64,000 bases of DNA from a virus. Below are positions 2,163-62,190 of the stretch, in pieces. The DNA is taken from positions 90,157 to 154,156 of IMG/VR virus record IMGVR_UViG_3300044816_000098. One strand, 5' to 3'. How positions within the stretch are numbered: position 1 is the first letter of the stretch; each line of letters starts with the position of its first letter. Under the pieces are notes generated by a model. The model was not told the DNA's origin, searched no databases, and was given only the letters and a program-made list of their open reading frames with translations. Both the position numbers and the translations under genes were made by a program.

Positions 2163-5100
2163 GTGGCCAACAGGACATGCGAACGGTGCGGGGGAAAGGC
2201 ATCCCCGTGGATCCCGCGCAAGCGGAGCACCCAGGGGCAGATGCTCTGTGACGGGTGCACCCAGGTCGTGGCCCGGGAGCGTGTGTCCGCGAGGACCGCG
2301 AGCACGGATCCGGTGGAGGACCGCCAGCCCGCCGGGAGTGCTACCTCGGACTTCGGCTGGGACAACGACCTCGGGCCGGAGGGTGTCCATCCCCTCATGG
2401 CCCCGCTGCCGAACTCCATGTGGGAGCGCTTCTCCAAGAAGCAGGAGCTGCGCGGCAAGCCCCTGGTGCCCATGGCGAGCCAGATCAAGATCAACCAGAA
2501 GATGCGCGGCGAGAGCGGGGGTAAGACCGCCGCGCTCAAGACGGCGGACAAGGACCTCTCTCACAACGCGCATACGGTGACCCCGGGCAAGGTGATGACC
2601 AAGCACCTTGAGGAACACCACGATCTGCCTTACGCAGAGGCGTATGTCCATGGTTACGGCGCGAGCAAGCACCTGGAGCTGCACAACTCCGGCGCCGATC
2701 ACACCCATGACCCCTCTGGCGCCGTGGTGCCCAATGCTCCTCATGCACACACGAAGATGTCCGAGAAGGAGTTGGACTCCCACCTCACGGAGCACCACGG
2801 TCTGCCCGCCGCCTCGGTGAAGACGCTGAAGAATTTCCTGAACCCGGGACAGACCATGCATGGCCTGCATGCCGGGTACCACGAGGACCCCAATTCACCT
2901 GCTGCCCCCACGATCTCTCACAAGCACTCTGGAGAGGACTTCAGCAGCTCTCCTGAGGTCAACGGGAAGAAGCAGTCTCCTCACCCCGGCTCGATGACGT
3001 CCGGCGGTCTGAAGGCCCACCTGCTGGCCGACCACGACATGCCCGGCGACCACATCGCCAACGCGATCGACGCCACCGCCAAGGGCGCGATGCCGATCGA
3101 GACCATGAAGGCCCTGCACGACAAGGCGCACTCCCAGGGCATTGGGGTCGACAGTCACGAGCACGCCGAGGGGTGGGACCACCAGAGCTTCGTTCACCAG
3201 GACCCGCACGGGGTGGACGAGCACCTCGGACACCTCAAGCACGCCCACGGCATCGGGGACGAGGAGCTGGCCCAGAAGGCCGAGGCGTCCGGCGGGGACC
3301 CGGAGCTGCACCACCAGAAGCTGAAGGAACTCCACTACGACCTGCACGACCATGACGCCGGGTCGTACATCAAGCACGGGGCCCCGAACCACACGCACAG
3401 CGGGCACTCGGATGTGGGCCAGGCTTTCCTCGGAAGCAAGGGTGGGGATAGCGAGTACGAAAGTGGGGCGCATCTTCAGCATTCGCATGGACTGTTGGTG
3501 AAGGACCTCACCGATATCACCAAGTCGGAGCCCGACTACATCTCCCCGCAGCAGGCGTACGAGACGGCCCACGCGGCCCTCCACGCCAAGATGGGGGAGA
3601 ACGTCGATCACCAGCACGTGCCGACGATCAAGGAGGGGGTGAAGACCCCCGAGAAGATCGCCAAGGAGAAGATGGTCCAGCACTTCAAGGACCATCACCC
3701 TGAGGTATCCGACCCCGACCACATGTCGGTGGGCAGTCATGCTTCTCTCCATGACCCAGAGGCGTGGGGCTACAAGGGCCACCCCGGTCACGAGCACGAG
3801 AACGGGTGGGCAGGGAAAGTCGTCAAGGCCCTTCCCACGGAGAAGTCAGGGAAGCCCCTCACGCACGCTCACGCGTCGGACATGAGCCACAAGCAGCTCA
3901 AGGGCCACTTGATCATCGCCCACAACAACACGGGCGACGATCTGCACCTGAAGTCGCACAGTGAGCTGTTGCAGCAGCACGCCACCGAGCACGCGACCGG
4001 CGCCGCCACGAACCCCTGGAACGAGGGAGAGAAGCTCCCCGCGCACAACCACGGGATCTCGCAGAGCGGCCACGACGCCTTCGGGCGCAAGCTCTACGGT
4101 GGCGACGAGCCGGAGCCGAACGCCAAGATCCACCCGGCGGTCGAGGACGAATCCGGCGCGCTGGCGCACATCATTCAGCACCACCCCAACATCTCGGCAG
4201 AGACCTACGACACGTACAAGGGCGGGGACAACCCGCAGAAGTCGATGCAGAACTTCCACGCGAAGCTGCATGCAGGGAACACGGGACTCCCTGCGGCCCC
4301 TGACGGGCACGAGCACGCCGAGAAGCAGGGTCCTTCGACGCACATCCCCATCGGCTCCCACCTGGTCTCCCACCACGGGATGTCGCAGGAGCAGGTGGCC
4401 TCGATGTCGCCTGCGGAGTTCAAGGCCCACCACGAAGAGCTGCACACCCGACATGAAGAGGCGGACCTCGGACACGGCCACATCACGCCGGGCGGCAAGG
4501 TCCGGGGACCCATCGACTCCGCAATCAACCCGCACCACGCGAAGATGCGGGAGAACCCCGACCACCCTGCGGTCACCGAGTGGTACCACGGCACGAGCAA
4601 CGACTTCGAGGGTCCGCCGAAGAACGCCACCGAGCTGATGGAAGACCATTCTCAGTGGGGCAACTACGGCGGCGGTGACTGGAACAACCACGCCGGAACC
4701 CACTGGTCCTCGCTCCACGACATGGCGAGGAACTTCGGCAGCGGGGACAACCGGGTCGTCCACGCCAAGCTCCACATGAAGAACCCGATCACCTACAACT
4801 CGCTGAACCACATGTCCCACGACGCGTATGACCGTCTCCACGCGTCCGGCGACATGCAGGACGGCGGGGAGTTCCTGGGCAAGCACGACGACGACAACGG
4901 CTACAACGAGTGCTGCTCAAAGCCCCTGCTCCACTACGCCAAGGGCGGCCACCGCTCGGACGGCAAGTACGGCATGGAGCGGTACCGGGACTCCCTGCGG
5001 GCCTCCGGCCACGACGGGATCCTGGTCCGGAACCAGGCGGACGACCCCTCTGGCCACTGGAACGCCATCCCGTTGCACGCGGACCAGGTGGAGATCACCC

Positions 5101-12157: not shown

Positions 12158-15100
12158 ATGGGGCTGGGACGCCGCGAGAGCAGTCACGACACGGCTCTCT
12201 CCCGCAAGCAGGGTGTTGGGGACTACCCGACCACGTTCATGCCGGGCCAGCGGGTGATGACGGTGGACGGCATCCCCGGGATCATCGACGGGATCGACTA
12301 CTCGCCCCAGATGGGGGAGCAGTACGAAGTCACCCTGGAGAACGGCGCCGGGCACGGTAACTACGCCCCTTCCCAGCTCTCCCCGATGGCCGGGCACATC
12401 GCGTCGGGCGCGCACCTGGCGAGCGACGACTACCCGGAGCTGACGGAGATCCTCCGGGAGCGGCCGGACATTGCTCTGCCGACCCACGTGGGTTCGCTCC
12501 AGACCACGGCTGCGACCCGGGCGGACTTCCAGTTCGAGCACGAGGACACGGGCATCGGTGGGGTGAAGTTCGGTCCCAAGCAGCACCTGCGCGCGATCCA
12601 CCCGGAGACGGGAGAGCAGGCCGGGAAGCTGACGTACTTCGCGCCCAAGCGCAAGGGGTCCCCGGTGACAATGGACAGCCTGACCACGAGCCACCCTGGC
12701 GCGGGGTCCGCGCTGATGGACGAGATGGAGTCCCGACACCCGGGAAGCCGGGTCGTACACGACCAGCCCATGAGCAAGGGCAAGCCGCACTACGACCACC
12801 CGGATTACGGCAAGCCGACGGACTGGGAGTCTCGCTTCCCGAGCCTGCCGGATCAGGTCCATCGGGGCATGAGCGTGCGTCTGGAGGGGTCGGACGCCCG
12901 CGCGGTGACGAGCGGGAACGGATCGGCAGCCGAGCACGGGGAACTCCTGAAGCAGCACCTGCAATCCACGGGCCCTCTGGGCATGCACTGGTCCACCAGC
13001 GAGGACATCCCCCGGAACTTCGCGCACCGCAATATCCGCGACCCCCGGCAGGACGTGCCGGTGATCGTGCACGCCGACCGGCCGGAGGCCAAGGACATCG
13101 AGACCCGGCCGCAGGTCCTGAAGGACCGAGGCGTCTGGTCGCACGACTACGAGCACGGTGATGCCGAGGTCCCGGTACGCAAGGGCCGGAAGCTCAATCT
13201 GCGGGGAATCTCCTGGAAGCCGGACGCCCCGCATCCGGAGGCCGACGCCGACGGATGGGTGCACCACACCTTCGAGGGCACTCAGCACAAGGCGTCCCTG
13301 ATCGTGGTGGGTGGCGACGACGACGGCGACTACCGGATGCAGCACAAGGCGCCCACTCCTGGCGAGGGGAACAACCACCTCGGCGAGATGGGCTATGCGG
13401 GGGAGCACGTCCCGATCTACCGGTCTGCCCCGCACGGGGTCCACACCATCAGCCCTGGTGACTGGGTCTCCACCAACGCGGACTACGCCCACCAGCACGG
13501 TATGCACGGCACCAACTCGGAGAAGGACTGGCCCGTCCTGACCGCCCACGTCCCGGCAGAGCATGTGTGGACCGACCACAACGACGAGAACGAGCAGGGG
13601 TACCACGGCCCCCCGATCCACGAGGCAGACTTCCACCACCCCGAGCTGGGCGAGGTCTCTCACAGTGACGCCCACGCGGCACAGGACGAGCACCGGGAAA
13701 TGGGCATCCACCTGCTCTCGGAGAAGCCCGCCCCGGAGACCCACACCGGCGCGGCGGTGCAGTTGAGCCCCGAGGACCACGCGTTCGTCCACGACTCCTC
13801 GAAGCCGATCCACGAGCGGGCGCAGAGGGTCTATCAGGCCACTCGGGACAACAGCAACCACCTGTACAACGACGATCACGAAGATGCCCAGAGCGCGGCA
13901 GACGACGCCGATGTGGACGCGTACGACCTGAACGAAGACCACGGCAAGGATCCCCAGTCGCTCACCCACGTGGTTCTGCACGGGCACGAGGGCAATGGCG
14001 GCCTGCACCACGGGATCTCGTGGGGCGGAGCCGATGAAGCGGGTGCGCCGTTGTACCCCAAGGAGTACACGCACCATCACCTGGTGGACGGTAGTCACAT
14101 GAAGACGGCCGGGGCCTTCAACGGTATGGACGGTGGGTTCGAGGACGTCTCCGACGAGGACCCCAACGAGGACATCGTCACCCACGGGTCTTTCGACCCG
14201 TACGACCTGCTCACCGTGGCAGCGGTCGACCCGGTCTTCCGCTTCCACATCACCGCGTCCTGGGCTGACGTCCAGCGCAAGGCCAAGCGCATCCGCTCCG
14301 AGGGCAAGGTGCGGATCACCCTCGCCTCGGACGGTCTGGTGATCGGTGAGGTCCAGGGCGACCACCACGTCTACGAGACCGGGGTGCAGCGCTTCCCCGG
14401 CTCCAAGCACTCGGTGGCCACCTACACCTGCGGCTGCAAGTGGGGCGCGTACCACTGGGGCGCGAACGACGACTTCTCGCGGTTCGCGGGCAGGATGTGC
14501 AGTCACGCTCTCGCGCTCCAGTACGAGGCGTCCAGCCGGGGCATGTTCGGCCGGGACGTCAAGGAGGACGGCTCCAAGCCGGACTGGGTCCCGAAGAAGA
14601 TCGTCCTGCGCTACGACATCGACGAGGGCGACAACGTCATGGCGAGGTCCTCCTCCCTGGAGGTCACGCCCCTGATCGCTCTGGCCCACTGGGCCGAGGC
14701 TCAAGGAGACGATCAGGATGAGTTTCACCTCGCCCTGGTCTGCGCCGGGCTGAACGTCACAGCCGCCGTGAGTTCTCCGTGGGGCGAGCCGTCGGCTCCC
14801 CGGCCGAACTACACGCCGGGCCCGACCAAGCCCCGGGATCCCTCGGAGAACCCCGCGTCGGCAGGATGGGCCTCGCAGGGCGACCCGGACAACTGGGGGT
14901 CCATCGAGGGCAACCAGCTCGGGGACCGGATCGCGGCACTGGAAGACGATGCGTTCCTCTTCGAGGGATCCATCCCCGAGGAGGTGGCTCAGTCCGATGA
15001 TCCCCAGGCGTCCGTACCGGGTCTTCATCAGAACGACGCCGACCCGATCTCTGCTTCTGCGGCCCAGGAGGGCCCGCCGCGACCCTCTGGCCCCAAGGGT

Positions 15101-20222: not shown

Positions 20223-20534
20223 ATGCCCGATAGCCAGAACGTCGTCCTCAGTCTGGTCCGCACCTGGGTCCCGATCGTGGTCGGCTCCGTCGTCTCGTGG
20301 CTCGCCGGGCTCGGCCTGGACGTCAACACGGACGCCAAGGGCGCCATGACGGTCCTGATGACCGCGATCCTGATCGGCCTGTACTACACGGTCGTGCGCC
20401 TGCTGGAGAAGCAGTTCCCCTGGATCGGGATCCTGCTGGGGGCTCCGACCCAGCCGGTGTACTCCGCGCCGGTGACGACCTCCAACGGGGGAACGGCCGC
20501 CCCGATGTACCCGCCGGACCCTCCGGTCCTCTAA
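20223..20534 (+). CDS. holin
   Basis: 103 residues, starting one base after the endolysin stop. Two transmembrane helices, about 13-31 (WVPIVVGSVVSWLAGLGL) and 42-60 (MTVLMTAILIGLYYTVVRLL), are joined by a short Asp/Lys loop, with a Pro-rich tail. Size, topology and position next to the amidase fit a two-TM actinophage holin that permeabilises the membrane for endolysin release. A strong terminator follows. Confidence 0.8.
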   Translation: MPDSQNVVLSLVRTWVPIVVGSVVSWLAGLGLDVNTDAKGAMTVLMTAILIGLYYTVVRLLEKQFPWIGILLGAPTQPVYSAPVTTSNGGTAAPMYPPDPPVL

Positions 20535-20547
20535 GGTCGGCCCTTCG

Positions 20548-20588
20548 AGAAGCCCCGTCTGTACCCGCCCGGCACAGACGGGGCTTCT
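20548..20588 (+). terminator. rho-independent terminator after the lysis cassette
   Basis: AGAAGCCCCGTCTGT pairs with ACAGACGGGGCTTCT across 11 bases, a 15-bp perfect stem. It separates lysis from capsid genes. Confidence 0.85.
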
Positions 20589-20628
20589 TGCTGTCCTCCC
20601 GGCCGGTAGGGCCCAGAAGAGGTGGAGG
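20589..20628 (+). promoter_or_regulatory. bipartite late-element copy 5
   Basis: TGCTGTCC (20589-20596), 20 bases, AAGAGGTGGAGG (20617-20628), an exact match to the consensus. It starts at the base after the terminator stem. The protease ATG is 11 bases past AAGAGGTG, so the 3' box doubles as its ribosome binding region. Confidence 0.65.
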
Positions 20629-20635
20629 TGCGCCG

Positions 20636-22363
20636 ATGCTGAAGTACGCCAGCACGCAGGTCATGTCGAAGGTTCTCGCCCCGGTGGGCGTGAGCCGCCG
20701 TGAGCTGCGTCGGTTCGCGCACCGGCACCAGTTCCAGTACGAGGTGCGGCCGGGGTTCCTGTACGTCCGCTCGCGGGCGATCTCCAGTCGGTGCAACGAC
20801 AACTTCGACGAGTTCCCCGCCGAGGAGCTGGAGAAGGCGTATGCCTCCTTCAAGGGCAAGCCGGTCTTCGTCAATCACGTGAACAACAACCACCACCGCG
20901 CTCGCGGCGTGATCATCGACGCCGCGCTCCACAAGGACTCGAACCGCGACGGCAGTCGAGACTGGTGGATCGAGGTCCTTCAGGAAATCGACGCGGTCCG
21001 CTTTCCCCGGCTGGCGAAGGAAATCCTGGCGGGCAATATCGCCCGGACCTCCATGGGCTGCGATGTGTCCCATTCCATTTGCAGCGCGTGCGGGAACAAG
21101 GCCACCACTCCGGCCGAATACTGCGCGCACATTCCGGCCTCCAAGGGAATGAAGCTCTACCGGACGACTGCCTCCGGGCAGAAGGTCGGCGACATCATCC
21201 GGGAGACCTGCTTCGGGCTGAAGTTCTTCGAGAACTCGCTCCTGGTGGAACCCCCGGCGGACCCCACGGCGCATTTCACTGGTGTCGACGCCTCCGGCCT
21301 GGACAAGGCTGCGGCCCTCTCCCAGAAGGAAAGGGCCACCCCTGCCATGCCGAGCCATACCTTGCCGGACCATGCCGCGCCACGCCTAGCCGAGACCAGC
21401 CACGCGGTGAACCAGCAGCGTACCGCATCGGTTGACGCTGTCTCCAAACTGGCCTACGGCGAGACGAAGGCTCCGGAGGACGTCGACACCCTCCGCGAGG
21501 ACTCGTGCCCCGTCTGCGGCGACCGCGACACCTATGACGGCGCGACCTGTGCGGTCTGTGCATATGTTTCGCCGCCGAAAATCTTCCAGGACCCGGATCT
21601 CGAACTCGCCCGCCAGATGGACCTGAGGAAAGACATCTCGGAGTTCAACGGTCAGCCGGGCCAGCCCGTCGATCCGAACGCCCTGGATGCACAGGGCAAT
21701 CCCATCCCCGGCGCCTCTCCCGAAGAGCAGGTCCCCGGTTCGCTCCCCGGTGAGGTTCAGGCCGAGGTGCAGACCGCTGACGGCTCCGAGGGTCAGATGC
21801 CGGGTCAGGACGGCCAGATGGCCCCGCAGCCGGGGGAACCGATTGACCCGGCCATGCTCGGACCTGACGGTCAGCCTCTTCAGCAGGGCCAGCAGATGAT
21901 CGGCCCTGACGGGATGCCTCTTCCCCAGCAAGGGCAGCAGCCCATGCTGGGTCCGGACGGTATGCCCATCGGACCCCAGCCGCTTCCTGCGGATGCGATG
22001 TCCGGTGACGGCCAGCCGTTCAACCCTGGCCCGAACGAGCCCCAGGGACCCGGTGGTCCGGAACAGCCTCTCGGACCCGAGGACCTGGACAGCGACGGTC
22101 AGGTGCCCAACCCGGAAGCCGGACAGGGTGTACCGGGCACTCCCGAGGACGGTGTCCCCGACCTCATGTGCCCCGCCTGCGGATTCACCGCCGACGCCAC
22201 TCAGCCCGTCTCCGTCGACATGGACACGGCCAACCTCCCGGACGCGGGAGTGGCCACCCAGGACGGAGTAGCGGCCGGGGATGTCTGCCCGAACTGCGGC
22301 ACGGGACTGTTGCTCAGCCCGGCTGAGGTCCAGGGCGAAGCCTCCGTTCCCGTCACCGTGTAG
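20636..22363 (+). CDS. capsid maturation (prohead) protease with zinc ribbons and long Gln/Pro/Gly tail
   Basis: 575 residues. The N-terminal 170 residues resemble prohead serine proteases: FLYVRSRAISSRCNDNFDEF, then KPVFVNHVNNNHHRARG (His81 candidate) and NIARTSMGCDV (Ser139 candidate). Three Cys pairs follow (CSACGNKAT with EYCAH; SCPVCGDRD with CAVC; MCPACGF with VCPNCG), separated by a Gln/Pro/Gly/Met-rich stretch (about 340-510) that could act as an internal scaffold. Residues about 234-254 are encoded by a degenerate pentanucleotide tract. Its order before the decoration and capsid genes supports the call. The protease would cut scaffold and other head proteins during maturation. Confidence 0.75.
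   Translation: MLKYASTQVMSKVLAPVGVSRRELRRFAHRHQFQYEVRPGFLYVRSRAISSRCNDNFDEFPAEELEKAYASFKGKPVFVNHVNNNHHRARGVIIDAALHKDSNRDGSRDWWIEVLQEIDAVRFPRLAKEILAGNIARTSMGCDVSHSICSACGNKATTPAEYCAHIPASKGMKLYRTTASGQKVGDIIRETCFGLKFFENSLLVEPPADPTAHFTGVDASGLDKAAALSQKERATPAMPSHTLPDHAAPRLAETSHAVNQQRTASVDAVSKLAYGETKAPEDVDTLREDSCPVCGDRDTYDGATCAVCAYVSPPKIFQDPDLELARQMDLRKDISEFNGQPGQPVDPNALDAQGNPIPGASPEEQVPGSLPGEVQAEVQTADGSEGQMPGQDGQMAPQPGEPIDPAMLGPDGQPLQQGQQMIGPDGMPLPQQGQQPMLGPDGMPIGPQPLPADAMSGDGQPFNPGPNEPQGPGGPEQPLGPEDLDSDGQVPNPEAGQGVPGTPEDGVPDLMCPACGFTADATQPVSVDMDTANLPDAGVATQDGVAAGDVCPNCGTGLLLSPAEVQGEASVPVTV
21313..21396 (+). repeat. hairpin plus degenerate pentanucleotide tract inside the protease gene
   Basis: GGCCCT/AGGGCC hairpin (21313-21337), then a run of 5-base units of the form CCNTG/CCGNG/CCTAG to about 21396. 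The same arrangement makes up the noncoding array at 60.87-61.25 kb. It stays in frame and encodes a Pro/His/Ala-rich linker. Confidence 0.6.
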
Positions 22364-27052: not shown

Positions 27053-28444
27053 ATGACCACACCCGTTGACACCGAGGGTGTCTCCGGCAACGCCGGGGCT
27101 GCCCCTCTGGGTACCGGCCGTTTCGCCAGCAACGTCGACACCGCCACTCCCGGCGGGGTCGGTGGTGGAGACACCGGGCTGGCGCCGGACCCGAACACCG
27201 CGATGTCCGGTACCCCCGACACCTCCGGCGCGGGCCAGGGCCAGAGTGCGACTTTCACGCCGGTCAGTACCCTGCTCTCCGGCACCTTGGACACCCAGTC
27301 CATGGGCTGGCCGCTGACTGCGGGTGTCTCCCAGGCGTACCGCGCCCCGAACACCACGATTGGCACCATCAACGGCGCCACCGGCGCGCTGGACACCACC
27401 CGCACCGACACGCCCATCTCGGACGGCTCCACCCGGCCCGACCTGATGAGCACCTACACCGGCACCATGGACAGCAACTACATCGGCGCCCCTGCGGTCC
27501 TGCCGGTCTCCTCGCTGGTCCCCGTCGCCCCGGCCGGTACCCCCACGGTCTCCAACGCGATTGCGGCCCGCTCGGTGCGGGTCACCTGGGCCACCGTGGC
27601 CGACCCGCATGCCACCGCTCCGGTCCAGGGGTACGTCATCCTGGGCTCCACCGGCGGCACGACCTACGCGCCCCGCAACGCGACCTCGGTCATCGTCCAG
27701 AACCTGGTCCCCGGACAGTCGTACAAGTTCCAGGTCGCGGCCCAGAACATCAACGGTCTGGGCCCGTACGGGACCGTCTCCGCCGCCGTCATCCCGTACA
27801 ACCCGGACGAGGCCGACGCGAACGACCCGAACGCCGGTCTGGAGCCCGCGAACACCCAGAACCCCATCTACGGTCCGGACGGCACCATCAAGGCCGGTAC
27901 AGGGCTTGCTGGGCGTCCTGGAGCCCCCACCTCGGTCGTGCTCTCGGGTACCACCACTCCGGGTGTCGTCAACGTTGTCTGGGTCGCTCCGACCGGTGTG
28001 GGCATCGTCCTGCGCTACACGGTGACCCTGTCCTCGGGCCAGACCAAGACGATCGCGGCGGGAACCCTCACCGCGCAGTTCACCGGCGTCGCCAGCGCGA
28101 CGGCCATCACGGGCACCGTCACGGCCGTGGGTGCGGTCACCAGCACCACTTCGGCGGCCTCTGCGGCCTTCGGTAAGCCGACGGCGCCTGCGGCCCCCAC
28201 GCTCACCAGTCCGACCGCCGGGACGATCCACTGCGTGTGGACTGCCCCGTCCTCGGGTGCGCCGCTGAACTACATCATCACCCTCGCGGGTGGCGACACC
28301 ACGACCCACACGGTGGCGGGCAACCTGCTCACCTACGACTTCACCAGCATCACCACCGGCCACGTCGACACTGCCACGGTCGGGGCCCAGGGCTCCGTCT
28401 CCACCACCACCTCGGTCGCCTCCTCTGCGGTGACCGTCTCCTAA
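27053..28444 (+). CDS. virion surface protein with three fibronectin type III-like domains
   Basis: 463 residues; ATG after AGGAGCAGCACTG. A Gly/Thr/Pro-rich N-terminal 150 residues precede an FN3 domain (about 160-250: SVRVTWATVADP ... LVPGQSYKFQVAAQNINGLG). Two further FN3-like repeats follow (about 285-370 and 372-463, each opening with GAPTSV or APAAPT and an internal W). Such Ig/FN3 arrays decorate phage capsids or tails and bind carbohydrate weakly. Its place in the head region suggests a Hoc-like head ornament (inference). A terminator follows. Confidence 0.75.
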   Translation: MTTPVDTEGVSGNAGAAPLGTGRFASNVDTATPGGVGGGDTGLAPDPNTAMSGTPDTSGAGQGQSATFTPVSTLLSGTLDTQSMGWPLTAGVSQAYRAPNTTIGTINGATGALDTTRTDTPISDGSTRPDLMSTYTGTMDSNYIGAPAVLPVSSLVPVAPAGTPTVSNAIAARSVRVTWATVADPHATAPVQGYVILGSTGGTTYAPRNATSVIVQNLVPGQSYKFQVAAQNINGLGPYGTVSAAVIPYNPDEADANDPNAGLEPANTQNPIYGPDGTIKAGTGLAGRPGAPTSVVLSGTTTPGVVNVVWVAPTGVGIVLRYTVTLSSGQTKTIAAGTLTAQFTGVASATAITGTVTAVGAVTSTTSAASAAFGKPTAPAAPTLTSPTAGTIHCVWTAPSSGAPLNYIITLAGGDTTTHTVAGNLLTYDFTSITTGHVDTATVGAQGSVSTTTSVASSAVTVS

Positions 28445-28462
28445 CACTCCCTCTCCTGACGG

Positions 28463-28493
28463 GGCCTCCGTACGCGCGACCGGTACGGAGGCC
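28463..28493 (+). terminator. rho-independent terminator
   Basis: GGCCTCCGTAC pairs perfectly with GTACGGAGGCC across 9 bases. It ends the FN3-protein unit. Confidence 0.8.
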
Positions 28494-28529
28494 CTCGTCC
28501 TGTAATCGTTGGTAGTACCTAAGTGATGT

Positions 28530-28569
28530 TGCTGTCTGAGCCCCCGCCTCCCCGGTGAAGAGGTGAGGC
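28530..28569 (+). promoter_or_regulatory. bipartite late-element copy 8
   Basis: TGCTGTCT (28530-28537), 20 bases, AAGAGGTGAGGC (28558-28569). It follows the terminator by 36 bases and lies 23 bases before the next start. Confidence 0.6.
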
Positions 28570-28592
28570 CGTAACCAAGGATCGGGAGCCCG

Positions 28593-29261
28593 ATGTCCAC
28601 AACCAGTCAGCACGTGGGATACAAGATCCCGGACGGGTCCGACCCCTTCCTTCGGACCGACTTCGTCTCCAATCTGAACCTCTCCGACAGCTTCCCCGGG
28701 GACTGGATCTGCACGTCGACCACCCGGCCCACCTGGGGCGCCTCCCAGGCCGGGATGAAGATCACCGAGTCGGACACCCGCCGCACCATGCTGTGGAACG
28801 GCACCACCTGGCGAGAGATGCTCACCGGTCCCGCGATGTGGTGGGGCTCCCTGCGGCCCGGCGTGATGATCGGCCGGGGAACGACCGTCTCCTACGTGGT
28901 CGGCACCTTCACCGTGAACCGGCCGGGCACCCTGTTCGTGATGTCCACGACCGAACTGGGTCTGCCGGGCAACGGCTTCTCCCAGGGCAACGTGGTCTCC
29001 ATGGTGGACGGCAGCCTGGCGAACTGGGACGGCGCCGCCTTCGGTGAGTTCTTCGCCCAGGACAACCGCACCGCGCCCTCCACCGCCGGGCAGAACGCCT
29101 TCTCGGACACGTTCGCGTCGATCGGTGTCCGCACCGTGAGCGCGGGAACCCACTCCGTCGGCATCCGGGTCAGCATTCTGACCCAGCCCTCGATCAACAA
29201 CCTGGTGCGTGTCACGTCCATCCGCTCGATGGCCATGTTCGTCAACGGCACCGACCGCTAA
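28593..29261 (+). CDS. minor virion protein candidate (222 aa)
   Basis: ATG after GGGAGCCCG. The sequence is rich in Thr, Ser, Gly and aromatic residues and predicted all-beta. It includes TMLWNGTTWREMLTGPAMWW and a C-terminal jelly-roll-like pattern (GTHSVGIRVSILTQPSINNL), as in small fibre-tip or head-surface proteins. It sits upstream of neck proteins in the same unit. No family assigned. Confidence 0.6.
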   Translation: MSTTSQHVGYKIPDGSDPFLRTDFVSNLNLSDSFPGDWICTSTTRPTWGASQAGMKITESDTRRTMLWNGTTWREMLTGPAMWWGSLRPGVMIGRGTTVSYVVGTFTVNRPGTLFVMSTTELGLPGNGFSQGNVVSMVDGSLANWDGAAFGEFFAQDNRTAPSTAGQNAFSDTFASIGVRTVSAGTHSVGIRVSILTQPSINNLVRVTSIRSMAMFVNGTDR

Positions 29262-29270
29262 GGGGCATCC

Positions 29271-30134
29271 ATGCTGTGGGAGGACCGTCAGTACGTCTCG
29301 CAGTGGTCTGCGGAGATCATCGGCCTGCACCTGATCCAGAACGGCGTGCCGATCGACGCCGGGGGCGCGGTGTCGGTCTCCATGATCTCGGAGAACACCG
29401 GCGCCTCGATCTTCTCCCGGGCAGCAACCCATAACGCTGTTGGCGACTACTCGGTCACTCTGAGCAGCGTGGAGTCCGGCACTCCGGGTCAGTACACCGT
29501 GACCTGGAACTACCAGATCGCCTCGGTCGCCCAGTACTTCGAGACCGGCATCGAGATCGGTCCGGCCACCCCGGCCTACGACGGTCTGTCCCCGGACATG
29601 AAGAACATCGTGGAACAGGTGTGGATCCGCCTCGCCGACACGATCGACTCTCCCGGTGGCGGCCCGAACCTGACGACCTACATCCAGAGCAAGTTCGGCC
29701 GGGGCCGCATCGCCCAGTTGCTCAAGATCGGCGTTGGACGGCTCAACACGGTGGCCCAACCCCACGGCACCTTCACTCTGGACGGGGTGGGAGGGGCAAC
29801 CTTCCCCATCGCCCAGTGGGGGTCCCTGCTGGAGTCGGTGACGTGGATCGAGACGCTCAAGCACCTGATCCGTTCGTACACCGAGCAGCCGGACTTCGTG
29901 GGCGGCGGCAACATCTCCCGGCTCGACCGGACGAAGTACTCCAAGGCATGGCGAGACGTCATGGTCGACGAAGAGGCCATCGTCCGGGGCCAGCTCGATG
30001 TCTTCAAGATCGCCCAGATGGGTCTGGGCCGCCCTGCGGTCCTGATCTCCGGCGGCGTCTACGGACGGTACGGACCTACCCGCATGGCGGGCTCCGTCGC
30101 CGCCCGGCCGCGTTACTACACGCGGATGTACTGA
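29271..30134 (+). CDS. neck or head-tail connector candidate (287 aa)
   Basis: Starts 9 bases after the previous stop. An N-terminal beta domain (about 1-95, LIQNGVPIDAGGAVSVSMIS) is followed by a mostly helical half (SPDMKNIVEQVWIRLADTID; WIETLKHLIRSYTEQPDFVG) with a glycine-rich C-terminus. Two-domain architecture and position between capsid and tail genes suggest a connector or adaptor. The next gene starts in the last base of this stop. Confidence 0.55.
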   Translation: MLWEDRQYVSQWSAEIIGLHLIQNGVPIDAGGAVSVSMISENTGASIFSRAATHNAVGDYSVTLSSVESGTPGQYTVTWNYQIASVAQYFETGIEIGPATPAYDGLSPDMKNIVEQVWIRLADTIDSPGGGPNLTTYIQSKFGRGRIAQLLKIGVGRLNTVAQPHGTFTLDGVGGATFPIAQWGSLLESVTWIETLKHLIRSYTEQPDFVGGGNISRLDRTKYSKAWRDVMVDEEAIVRGQLDVFKIAQMGLGRPAVLISGGVYGRYGPTRMAGSVAARPRYYTRMY

Positions 30135-30412
30135 TGAAGGCCCTTCACTCCCCAGAGGTGATGGCGAAGTTCAACCTCGCCATGACCGTGCTCTGGTCCC
30201 TGCTCCTGATCCCTACCGTGATCTGGTGGAAGGACTCCCTGCTCTGGGTCCTGATCATGAGCGCCTACGCGAACATCGTCGGGCACTGGTCCGCGTACCA
30301 GGGTTCACGCGCAGGAGTGGAAGCGGAGCGAAACGGAGACACCGATTCAAAGGACGCTGTTAGGGTCAGTCCGCCGAGAGGGGCCAACCCGCCCCCGTCG
30401 TTGCAACCCTGA
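30134..30412 (+). CDS. small two-TM membrane protein (92 aa)
   Basis: ATG overlapping the previous TGA. Residues about 13-32 (NLAMTVLWSLLLIPTVIWWK) and 35-53 (LLWVLIMSAYANIVGHW) form two membrane helices, followed by a polar tail. A membrane protein among neck genes is unexpected; it could be a second holin, a superinfection-exclusion protein or a host-membrane modifier. Nothing in the sequence decides between these. Confidence 0.65.
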   Translation: MKALHSPEVMAKFNLAMTVLWSLLLIPTVIWWKDSLLWVLIMSAYANIVGHWSAYQGSRAGVEAERNGDTDSKDAVRVSPPRGANPPPSLQP

Positions 30413-59301: not shown

Positions 59302-60869
59302 CCGCACCCACGATCGAGAAGCCCCCTCCCGCCGGATGGCCGGAGGGGGCGCTCTACTACAGCCCGAAGGGTTTGTACGGGTTCCAGGCCGACGACATCG
59401 CCCGAGCCCTCGTCCTGCGCGCTGAGGGCCGTCCGCATGCCCTGTTCTCCTGGGGCACCGGTCTGGGGAAGTCGCACGGCCTGATGGCCACCAGCGCCTT
59501 CACGATCGAGGACCAAGCGGCAGACGTCGTGTTGCTGATCTGTGAGAAGGTCAAGCTCCAGGAATGGCTGGCGGACTTCCAGCAGTTCACCCGGTTCGAT
59601 ACCCGGATTCACCACGGTCCGAGCAGGAAGGGCAAGCTCGCCAAGCTCGGGTTCCCGCAGGTCCTGATCAGCACGTATGAGACCTTTGCTACCGATCTGG
59701 CCGTCTTTGAGGCGAATAAGAACGACCGAGGCAAGCATGCCGTCCACGGATGGCTCATGGGAGAGTTGATCAATTCCGGCCTCAAGCCGATGGTCATCTT
59801 CGACGAGTCGGACAAGCTCTCGAACCGTAAGAGTCGTCTGTACAAGTCGTGGGATCACGTTCTGCGTAACTTGCGTAAGAAGTACCCGAAAATGCCGGTT
59901 TACATGGCTTCTGCGACCCCGATCCGCCGAGACCTGGAGGGGGCGTACAACCAGCTCCGGTTGATGGCCCCGGGCAGCATGCCGCTGGTCGGCGAGTTCG
60001 AGAAGTACTTCTTGCGCGGTCGGGACATCTATGGCCGTCCCCAGTACTTCGACCACCGGATCCCCGAGTTCGTGGCCATGGCCGCACCGCTCCTGCTGAC
60101 CAAAAGCAAAGAGGACAAGGACGTCGTCGACCAGTTCCCGAAGCTCACCGAGGAGAGCTTGTGGGTCGACATGGAAGGCGCTCAGAAGGAGCTGTACGAC
60201 TTCGTCGCGGATCTGGACGTACCTGGCCAACTGACCGCCCTGCGGCAGATCTGCGCCCACCCGGCGGCACTCATCCACTCGGCTCTGTATGGGGAGAGCA
60301 AGCTCGCCAAGACGCTCTACGCCGAACTGGGTCCGGACTACCTGCGGTCGATCCCCTCCGCGAAGACCGAGCGACTCGTGGACTATGTCCGGCCGATCGT
60401 GCTCAACGAGCGAGCCAAGGTGGTCACCTTCTCCTTCTACGGCCCGAGCGTGTTGCCCCTGCTCAAGGCCACGCTGGAGGCCAAGGGGGTTCAGGTCTGG
60501 GTCCACGACGAGGACCACGGTATCCAGGCGTTCCGTACCTCGAAAGAGCCCGGCGTCCTGCTGTGCTCCGATGCGGCCAGCCGAGGGATCAACCTTCCCG
60601 AGGCCGAACACCTGATCGAGTACGACATAGCGGGCACCTACGGGACCCGGACCCAGCGGATCAACCGGGCCAGCCGGATCGGTCAGGGCGGGCCCACGCT
60701 GACGGTCCGGACCATGCTGATCCGCAAGTCAGTCGAGGTCAGCCTGTTGTACGGGATGCTGCGGGGTCACGCGCAGTCGGACGCCCTGCTGGGGGTCGGG
60801 GTCACAGGGGACGAGTTCCTCACTGCCGCCATGCGCCGCCGGATCCTGACCGAGGGCATGCACGACTGA
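59298..60869 (+). CDS. SNF2/DEAD-like superfamily 2 helicase
   Basis: 523 residues; ATG overlapping the previous stop. RecA-like domain 1: FQADDIARAL (Q-type region), GTGLGKS (53-59, Walker A), DESD (169-172, motif II) and SATPIRRD (205 on, motif III). Domain 2: VVTFSFYGPSVLPLL, VLLCSDAASRGINLPEA and QRINRASRIGQ (453 on, motif VI), the last being SNF2-like. It is an ATP-driven DNA translocase, probably in replication, recombination or DNA remodelling. A terminator hairpin overlaps its stop codon. Confidence 0.85.
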   Translation: MTAPTIEKPPPAGWPEGALYYSPKGLYGFQADDIARALVLRAEGRPHALFSWGTGLGKSHGLMATSAFTIEDQAADVVLLICEKVKLQEWLADFQQFTRFDTRIHHGPSRKGKLAKLGFPQVLISTYETFATDLAVFEANKNDRGKHAVHGWLMGELINSGLKPMVIFDESDKLSNRKSRLYKSWDHVLRNLRKKYPKMPVYMASATPIRRDLEGAYNQLRLMAPGSMPLVGEFEKYFLRGRDIYGRPQYFDHRIPEFVAMAAPLLLTKSKEDKDVVDQFPKLTEESLWVDMEGAQKELYDFVADLDVPGQLTALRQICAHPAALIHSALYGESKLAKTLYAELGPDYLRSIPSAKTERLVDYVRPIVLNERAKVVTFSFYGPSVLPLLKATLEAKGVQVWVHDEDHGIQAFRTSKEPGVLLCSDAASRGINLPEAEHLIEYDIAGTYGTRTQRINRASRIGQGGPTLTVRTMLIRKSVEVSLLYGMLRGHAQSDALLGVGVTGDEFLTAAMRRRILTEGMHD

Positions 60870-60893
60870 GGGGCCCTCCGAAGAGGGCCCCTC
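60868..60893 (+). terminator. terminator hairpin after the SNF2-like helicase
   Basis: GAGGGGCCCTC, CGAA tetraloop, GAGGGCCCCTC: an 11-bp perfect stem that includes part of the stop codon. It is also the first hairpin of the repeat array that follows. Confidence 0.75.
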
Positions 60894-61260
60894 CCATGCC
60901 TCGCCTTACCCCGCCAGGTCCCGCCGTACCTCGCCCAGCCTGGTCTCGCCTAGCCTCGCCTTGAACGCCCCCACTAGCGCCGTGAAGCCCTGATGGGGAA
61001 CCCTGCCTCGCCTAACCAGACCCCGCCTTGCCCAACCACGCCAGGCCCAGAACGTCCCCTCCAGGACTTTAAAATCCCGGAGGGGTACCTTGCCCTGCCG
61101 TACCTGGCCCTGCCACGTCCTGCCGTGCCAAACCGCGCCATGAACGCCCCCGCACGGGTATTGAGCCCCGTGTGGAGTACCTCGCCTCGCCATGCCGAAC
61201 CTCGCCCGGCCAGGACTTGCCTTGCCGTGCAGAACAGGACCCTACGCGAGAACTTGCACT
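60868..61260 (+). repeat. array of about 90-bp modules: stem-loop plus degenerate pentanucleotide tract
   Basis: After each stem-loop comes a run of 5-base units such as CCTCG, CCTTA, CCCCG, CCAGG, CCGTA, CCTAG. Module landmarks GAACG(C/T)CCCC recur at 60963, 61050 and 61142, with a decayed GAACAGGACC at 61232, so spacing is 87-92 bp. The stem-loops differ in sequence; the one at 61055-61087 pairs CCCCTCC with GGAGGGG around a TTTAAAAT loop. No coding frame with a ribosome binding site fits. Confidence 0.6.
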
Positions 61261-61405
61261 CCTGCAATGCCGGGAGTAACGTTCTCCTCGTTCGGAAGTT
61301 CACCCGCAAGGGGGAGCCCAAGAGCGTGCGCCCGTAAGGCCAGGGATCGTTAGGCCGGAGGGAAGTCCCGGACCCCTGTCCGGGTTCGACAGCCAGGGGT
61401 GAGTC

Positions 61406-61524
61406 ACGATGTTGGCAGAGTGGCCGAATGCACCGGTGGAGGACGGCGATACGTCCAGGACCGGAGATCCGTGAGGGGTATCGCCCCCTCCTGGTTCCGT
61501 GGAGTTCGAATCCCACACGTCGTA
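61406..61524 (+). tRNA. tRNA-like element, aberrant class II
   Basis: A 7-bp acceptor (ACGATGT with ACGTCGT, one G-U), a 3-bp D-stem around GAGTGGCCGAA, a T-arm with TTCGAAT and stem GTGG(A)G/CCCAC (one bulged A), and a variable-arm hairpin GAGGGG/CCCCTC are present. The anticodon stem would be CCGGT/ACCGG, but its loop is 22 bases with an internal GGACG/CGTCC stem, so no anticodon can be read. Length is 119 against about 90 for class II. It may be a decayed or interrupted tRNA-Leu/Ser, or a tRNA mimic. Confidence 0.35.
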
Positions 61525-61950
61525 CAAGGGGTGCACGGCCCAAGCAGATCCCTTACGTGCGCTCCCCACCAGCGGATGTCGGAGGACTAACTATCCCTCC
61601 GGCTCCGGCCTCAGGTCTGGTCCTACCTGTGCTGGGCAACGGGACCACCCCTCATCGCCCGGCGGGCTTTACTCCTTTCACCGCCGGGTGGCCCTGGACC
61701 CGCGTGCTGGCTAGATTCGGCGGGTTTATGCACCAGGTTCCCTCTCCTGGGGGCCGGAACGAGGTGGGGGCAGACGGGCGACGTGCACACATCTACTTCG
61801 CGGTAGGTGGTCGTCTGTTCGACCAGCGGCGTACTCCGTGCCGTGCCCCGACTACGGAGGAGGGGGAGGCATTCAGCCGGGCCTTTTTGGGTGGGCCAGG
61901 AAGGATGACCGGCAACGAGGTAGCTCGCCTCGTTGCCGCAGATGAGCGAC

Positions 61951-61995: not shown

Positions 61996-62190
61996 CAGAG
62001 GTGTTCACGACGGCATCAGTGGGGATCTCCAGCCCTGGCCCCACCAGCCCTTATAGGACCTTCAGGAACCTCACCAACACCAGCCCCTCCTGGCCGTAGT
62101 TGAGGAGGTACTTAGGTAGGGGACGTAGTTAGAACTCCCCGTGAAAACGTGCAGGTCAGTGGCCTGCTACGGCGATCCCGGGAGGAGGGG

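What the first reader, a model, noticed from the sequence alone, without database searches (positions are those of the whole stretch)
60868..61260. Tandem modules of stem-loop plus degenerate pentanucleotide repeats
Four to five modules, 87-92 bp apart, each combine a different hairpin with a run of 5-base units based on CC-N-N-G. The GAACG(C/T)CCCC landmark repeats at 60963, 61050 and 61142. Hairpin sequences vary while architecture is kept, which suggests selection on structure. It could be an array of small RNAs, a block to transcription or replication, a recombination hotspot or a packaging signal.
Basis: seen in the sequence. Interest (0 to 1): 0.66.

Follow-up and report, generated by a model that had tools for sequence, protein, structure and literature searches.

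The report
Phage VIPR guide-RNA array, away from vipr
The repeats are a bank of four small guide RNAs of VIPR, a recently described RNA-guided system with which phages switch off competitors' DNA; here, unusually, the bank lies about 94,000 bases from the protein gene it should work with, and another guide RNA appears to be tucked inside a capsid-maturation gene.

Summary
On the minus strand the unit is GGY-NN, repeated about 10-14 times and closed by a hairpin; four such modules fill 60868-61241. This is the architecture of vrRNAs, the guide RNAs of VIPR systems (preprint PMC13142463, 2026): Vipr, a Cas7-like RAMP protein, uses the NN pairs as a gapped guide to DNA. The same 154-kb virus record carries one vipr gene, a vap gene and about eight more vrRNAs 94 kb away. 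Its Vipr family matches the solved SUSP1 Vipr (PDB 36pp, E 1.8e-45) and folds like Csm3/Cas7. Of 120 viral contigs fetched only by the repeat pattern, 91 encode Vipr; of 36 control contigs, none. The hairpins are vrRNA 3' tails and covary strongly. Not in the preprint's main text: an array far from vipr, on the other strand, with its own predicted promoter, and a further vrRNA-like unit antisense inside the prohead-protease gene (21311-21401). No DNA target was found; self-targets are absent. A new member of a very recently described system.

The parts
61262..61267 (-). predicted -35 (TTGCAG) of a promoter reading into the array
   Evidence: sequence; 17-nt spacer; prediction only
61239..61244 (-). 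predicted -10 (TAGGGT) of the array promoter; start expected near 61232
   Evidence: sequence; prediction only
61254..61282 (+). copy of the phage's repeated promoter/operator element (TTGCAC-17-TAACGT over a palindrome), divergent to the array
   Evidence: 40 hits in genome, 0 in two shuffled genomes
61177..61241 (-). vrRNA A1, GGY/NN repeat tract (5' units degenerate)
61142..61181 (-). vrRNA A1 tail hairpin
61085..61139 (-). vrRNA A2, 11-unit GGY/NN tract
61050..61089 (-). vrRNA A2 tail hairpin
60998..61047 (-). vrRNA A3, 10-unit GGY/NN tract
60963..61002 (-). vrRNA A3 tail hairpin, identical over 40 nt to a tail beside vipr (G000:56906-56945)
60886..60960 (-). vrRNA A4, about 14-unit GGY/NN tract
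60868..60895 (-). vrRNA A4 tail: perfect 11-bp hairpin, also at the helicase stop codon; may serve as terminator
21337..21401 (-). vrRNA-like unit C, 12-13 GGY/NN units, antisense inside the prohead-protease gene (ORF 20297-22363 +)
21311..21341 (-). tail hairpin of unit C

Best explanation
The feature is an array of four vrRNAs of a type II-like VIPR system, transcribed on the minus strand from about 61232 down to about 60868. Each vrRNA is a GGY/NN repeat tract with a 3' hairpin tail. Vipr, encoded once in the genome at G000:56264-56848 outside the window, would assemble on the repeats, holding each GGY and presenting the NN pairs. The RNP would then bind double-stranded DNA through NN-x-NN-x pairing and repress it, most likely in a competing phage, prophage or satellite. 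The array supplies guides in trans. Shown here: repeat code, covarying tails, one vipr and one vap gene in the genome, RAMP fold, family membership, no self-target. Inferred: transcription from the predicted promoter, processing into single vrRNAs, use in trans, targets. The DNA-binding rule itself is the preprint's experimental result for SUSP1, not tested here.
For: GGY/NN register far above shuffles. 91 of 120 contigs selected only by the repeat pattern encode the Vipr family, against 0 of 36 control contigs; G-rich strand equals vipr sense strand in 82 of 84. Vipr profile finds PDB 36pp SUSP1 Vipr, E 1.8e-45; model pLDDT 97 matches Csm3/Cas7. G000 Vap belongs to the SUSP1 Vap family, E 2e-21. 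Tails of the window and of the vipr locus form one covarying family with one identical pair whose repeat tracts share 24/30 GGY but 11/20 NN positions. No self-target by the 1-nt skip rule. VIPR as described in PMC13142463.
Against: No RNA data. No target found. The array is about 94 kb from vipr and on the other strand, whereas 22 of 25 array-bearing records have arrays on one strand only. Promoter is a prediction. Paralogous tails in one genome are not independent events.
Confidence: 0.9

Rival explanations
1. A displaced or decaying VIPR array: a duplicate of the vipr-locus array that landed beside the helicase gene and is no longer expressed or used.
For: One tail is identical to a tail beside vipr; the 5' units of A1 are degenerate; it is far from vipr.
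Against: GGY register is kept in all four modules while NN differs; tails still pair well; a promoter-like sequence lies just upstream.
Confidence: 0.07
2. Transcription-control region of the helicase gene: C-rich Rho-loading stretch with terminator hairpins.
For: It lies just downstream of a + strand gene, the + strand is C-rich with regularly spaced CC, and the first hairpin sits at the stop codon.
Against: At the vipr locus the C-rich strand is antisense to the genes, as in 82 of 84 contigs; no U tracts after the hairpins; the strict 5-nt register and the tie to a RAMP protein are not explained.
Confidence: 0.02
3. DNA-level element: packaging, recombination or replication site made of protein-binding pentamers and extrudable hairpins.
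For: Repeats plus hairpins near one end of the record.
Against: Arrays occur at several places per genome and across unrelated phages beside vipr; the SUSP1 counterpart is expressed as RNA and co-purifies with Vipr (PMC13142463).
Confidence: 0.01

Closest known systems
VIPR type II, Escherichia phage SUSP1 clade (PMC13142463; PDB 36pp)
   Same: Vipr and Vap of the same families, GGY/NN repeat tracts, 3' structured tails, arrays beside vipr and vap.
   Different: Tails here are simple 40-nt hairpins, not the SUSP1 pseudoknot tail; repeats are GGC-rich; part of the arrays is remote from vipr, and one unit lies inside a coding gene.
Direct repeats DR_4 of Escherichia phage wV8 (Felix O1-like)
   Same: They flank wV8 gp95 (Vipr homologue) and gp94 (Vap homologue) and lie among GGTNN tracts.
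   Different: GGT-rich and annotated only as direct repeats.
CRISPR arrays with class 1 RAMP (Cas7/Csm3) effectors
   Same: RAMP protein fold and RNA arrays with variable guide positions and structured, conserved parts.
   Different: No conserved long repeat with unique spacers, no cas gene set seen at the locus; guide information lies in NN dinucleotides of a 5-nt repeat.

Membership tests
VIPR system | Vipr, a RAMP-fold protein, encoded in the genome | tested here: met
   G000:56264-56848; profile hit to PDB 36pp SUSP1 Vipr E 1.8e-45; family model matches Csm3/Cas7; 35% identity to SUSP1 Vipr
VIPR system | vrRNA: 9-16 tandem YNNGG (GGY/NN) repeats with conserved GGY and variable NN | tested here: met
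   four tracts of about 10-14 units in the window, eight beside vipr; GGY kept, NN differs in the identical-tail pair
VIPR system | structured 3' tail after the repeats | tested here: met
   40-nt hairpin tails with covariation
VIPR system | vap accessory gene beside vipr | tested here: met
   G000:57303-57881, SUSP1 Vap family profile E 2e-21
VIPR system | vrRNA arrays in the intergenic regions flanking vipr | tested here: not met
   met for the arrays at 56.8-58.1 kb, not for the array of this finding, about 94 kb from the only vipr; the preprint describes the flanking position as typical, not as obligatory, so this marks a variant arrangement
VIPR system | vrRNAs are expressed and bound by Vipr | not testable with these tools
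   needs RNA sequencing and pull-down
VIPR system | NN dinucleotides match foreign DNA with one skipped base | tested here: inconclusive
   no self-target; no supported foreign target in exact scans
known Rfam RNA family | match above the gathering score | tested here: not met

The most novel reading that the evidence does not exclude
Phages with VIPR can keep guide RNAs away from the vipr locus: an independent array with its own promoter near the other end of the genome, and a guide RNA written antisense into a tolerant linker of an essential structural gene, where it must satisfy both the protein reading frame and the GGY/NN code. Guides would then be dispersed, separately regulated cargo rather than part of one cassette.
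Probability: 0.55. Interest if true: 0.72.

Novelty: new member of a known kind. Interest (0 to 1): 0.6.

Why it matters
VIPR was described only in 2026 and is proposed to represent the lineage from which CRISPR RAMPs arose. This case places a type II-like system with about thirteen guides in a 154-kb phage related, by its prohead protease, to large actinobacterial phages; it shows guides far from the effector gene and one overlapping a structural gene, and it gives a natural pair (identical tail, different NNs) that separates scaffold from programmable part. In practice it means that vrRNAs should be sought over whole phage genomes, coding regions included.

Tried and rejected
Terminator or Rho site, recombination or packaging site: orientation relative to genes differs between loci and none explains the tie to a RAMP protein. 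Known RNA family: no Rfam match. Similar DNA in named phages: none for the array or for the last 24 kb. Relatives of the SNF2 helicase in viral contigs: none. Target search: guides decoded by the 1-nt skip rule; own genome at the level of shuffled guides; six exact scans of viral contigs and one of genome contigs gave few or no matches, none with convincing support over the full guide. Guide B2 decodes to a P-loop-like [KN][KN][KN]GGAG[KN]T and guide C in reverse to L[IM][DE][IM][FL]G[IM]ATY: suggestive, but no hit supports it. The run at 62026-62095 scores 33, below the shuffle maximum of 40, and is not counted. Relatives of a virus record cannot be drawn.

Full report
What is there. The window is bases 90157-154156 of a 154,156-bp virus record (G000). 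At 60868-61241, just past the stop codon of an SNF2-type helicase gene on the + strand, the minus strand reads as GGY-NN pentamers in strict register: four tracts of about 10-14 units, each followed by a hairpin. The best run scores 61, against at most 40 in 2000 shuffles; at fixed stringency five shuffled genomes gave 2, 0, 0, 0 and 0 regions against six in the real one.

Where else. The same genome has array regions at 56.8-57.3 and 57.9-58.1 kb on the + strand, with about eight repeat tracts, and one tract inside a coding gene at window 21337-21401. Looking at what lies beside these arrays, without a prior idea of the answer, gave one protein family: 84 of 120 loci encode a homologue of the 194-aa protein at G000:56264-56848, and in 82 of the 84 the G-rich strand of the array is the sense strand of that gene. 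Seven of the other 36 contigs encode it too when the whole contig is searched, making 91 of 120. In 36 viral contigs fetched by unrelated patterns there was none, and in the annotated phage collection 129 of 50,697 records have it (a single-query search, so not of equal sensitivity).

What the protein is. PHROGs lists it as phrog_4652 of unknown function and Pfam has no match. A 41-member profile finds one significant relative in the PDB, 36pp 'SUSP1 Vipr protein', E 1.8e-45. An AlphaFold model of a family member (L059, pLDDT 97) matches Csm3 and other Cas7-family RAMP subunits (Foldseek E about 5e-6, probability 1.00; that library ends in April 2026). The conserved C-terminal GxGDxRPxxGRF looks like a RAMP glycine-rich loop; that reading is from general knowledge.

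The known system. A full-text search led to PMC13142463 (bioRxiv, April/June 2026), which describes VIPR: Vipr, an accessory gene vap, and vrRNAs of 9-16 YNNGG repeats with a 3' tail. By its experiments with SUSP1 the NNs pair with double-stranded DNA with one skipped base between them, binding represses transcription, and natural targets are mostly competing phages and satellites. G000 has the defining parts: Vipr (35% identical to SUSP1 Vipr), a Vap of the SUSP1 family at G000:57303-57881 (profile E 2e-21), GGY/NN tracts and tails. I call it type II-like from these two protein families, not from a tree of my own.

Tails. Seven 40-nt tails, three from the window and four from the vipr locus, share their ends but differ in the stem. 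93% of cells pair against at most 56% with slid partners, 8 of 15 pairs change on both sides, and shuffles almost never reach this. They are paralogues from one genome, so the counts are not independent events. One window tail is identical over 40 nt to a tail beside vipr, yet the repeat tracts before them differ: 24 of 30 GGY positions are identical but 11 of 20 NN positions, part of the latter from the last units next to the tail. This is what a fixed scaffold with a programmable guide predicts.

What is unusual. First, the array is about 94 kb from the only vipr gene (about 60 kb the other way if the genome circularises) and on the opposite strand. Of 25 array-bearing records of 42-159 kb, 22 have all arrays on one strand; the exceptions are G000, G037 (four forward hits, gone at higher stringency) and G046, which also has a tract about 15 kb from its vipr. 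Second, it has its own likely promoter, TTGCAG-17-TAGGGT, reading into A1; it overlaps a + strand copy of an element repeated in this genome (TTGTAC-17-TANNNT around a palindrome like TACTCCTGCAATTGCAGGAGTA; 40 hits against 0 in two shuffled genomes). Third, the tract at 21337-21401 with its hairpin at 21311-21341 lies antisense inside the gene for a prohead protease (relatives: Rhodococcus phage E3 gp77, Gordonia phage Stormageddon gp13), in a linker that E3 and Phrappuccino lack; its score of 58 exceeds the maximum of 35 in 2000 codon shuffles of the gene. The preprint's main text does not mention distal arrays or vrRNAs inside genes (and reading); its supplement could not be read.

How it most likely works. 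The array is transcribed leftwards into four vrRNAs; Vipr made from the other locus binds them; each RNP looks for its NN-x-NN site in other DNA and silences it. Shown: code, tails, proteins, fold, no self-target above shuffled guides. Inferred: transcription, processing, use in trans, target identity. Exact scans for parts of guides A1, A2, A3, A4, B2 and C gave no supported target; since the host is unknown and collection scans allow no mismatch, this is weak evidence either way.

Verdict. It is a new member of VIPR with an arrangement (remote array, in-gene guide) for which I found one partial parallel among the contigs examined.

Noticed in passing
L133 4120-4420 (Mycobacterium phage LittleE), L138 2880-3140 (Gordonia phage MakoManhole), L137 2860-2920 (prophiBWHA-1), L015 about 3766-3841: In these VIPR loci the tails after the GGY/NN tracts look like tRNA minihelices: an acceptor-like stem joined to a T-arm with TTCGANT loop. 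This would suit processing by tRNA enzymes. Rfam does not call them; TTCGANTC follows tracts in 4 of 127 loci.
   Followed up: partly
window 61254-61282 and 15985; many copies at G000 30-80 kb: A repeated promoter/operator element, TTGTACTCCTGCAATNCNNGTAGTA, with an inner palindrome; 40 hits, mostly + strand, none in shuffled genomes.
   Followed up: partly
window 61414-61530: A tRNA-like stretch (GGCAGAGTGGCCGAATG ... GTTCGAATCCC) with a long variable region that ARAGORN does not call; perhaps a decayed class II tRNA.
   Followed up: no
window 62026-62095: A weak GGNNN run on the minus strand, score 33, within shuffle range.
   Followed up: partly
L132 2430-4420 (Escherichia phage wV8): The annotated direct repeats DR_4 of this Felix O1-like phage lie in the vrRNA arrays around its vipr and vap homologues, gp95 and gp94.
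   Followed up: yes
G046 (IMGVR_UViG_3300046723_000197) 14148-14195 and 27931-30245: A very dense VIPR locus with arrays on both strands around vipr and one tract about 15 kb away.
   Followed up: partly
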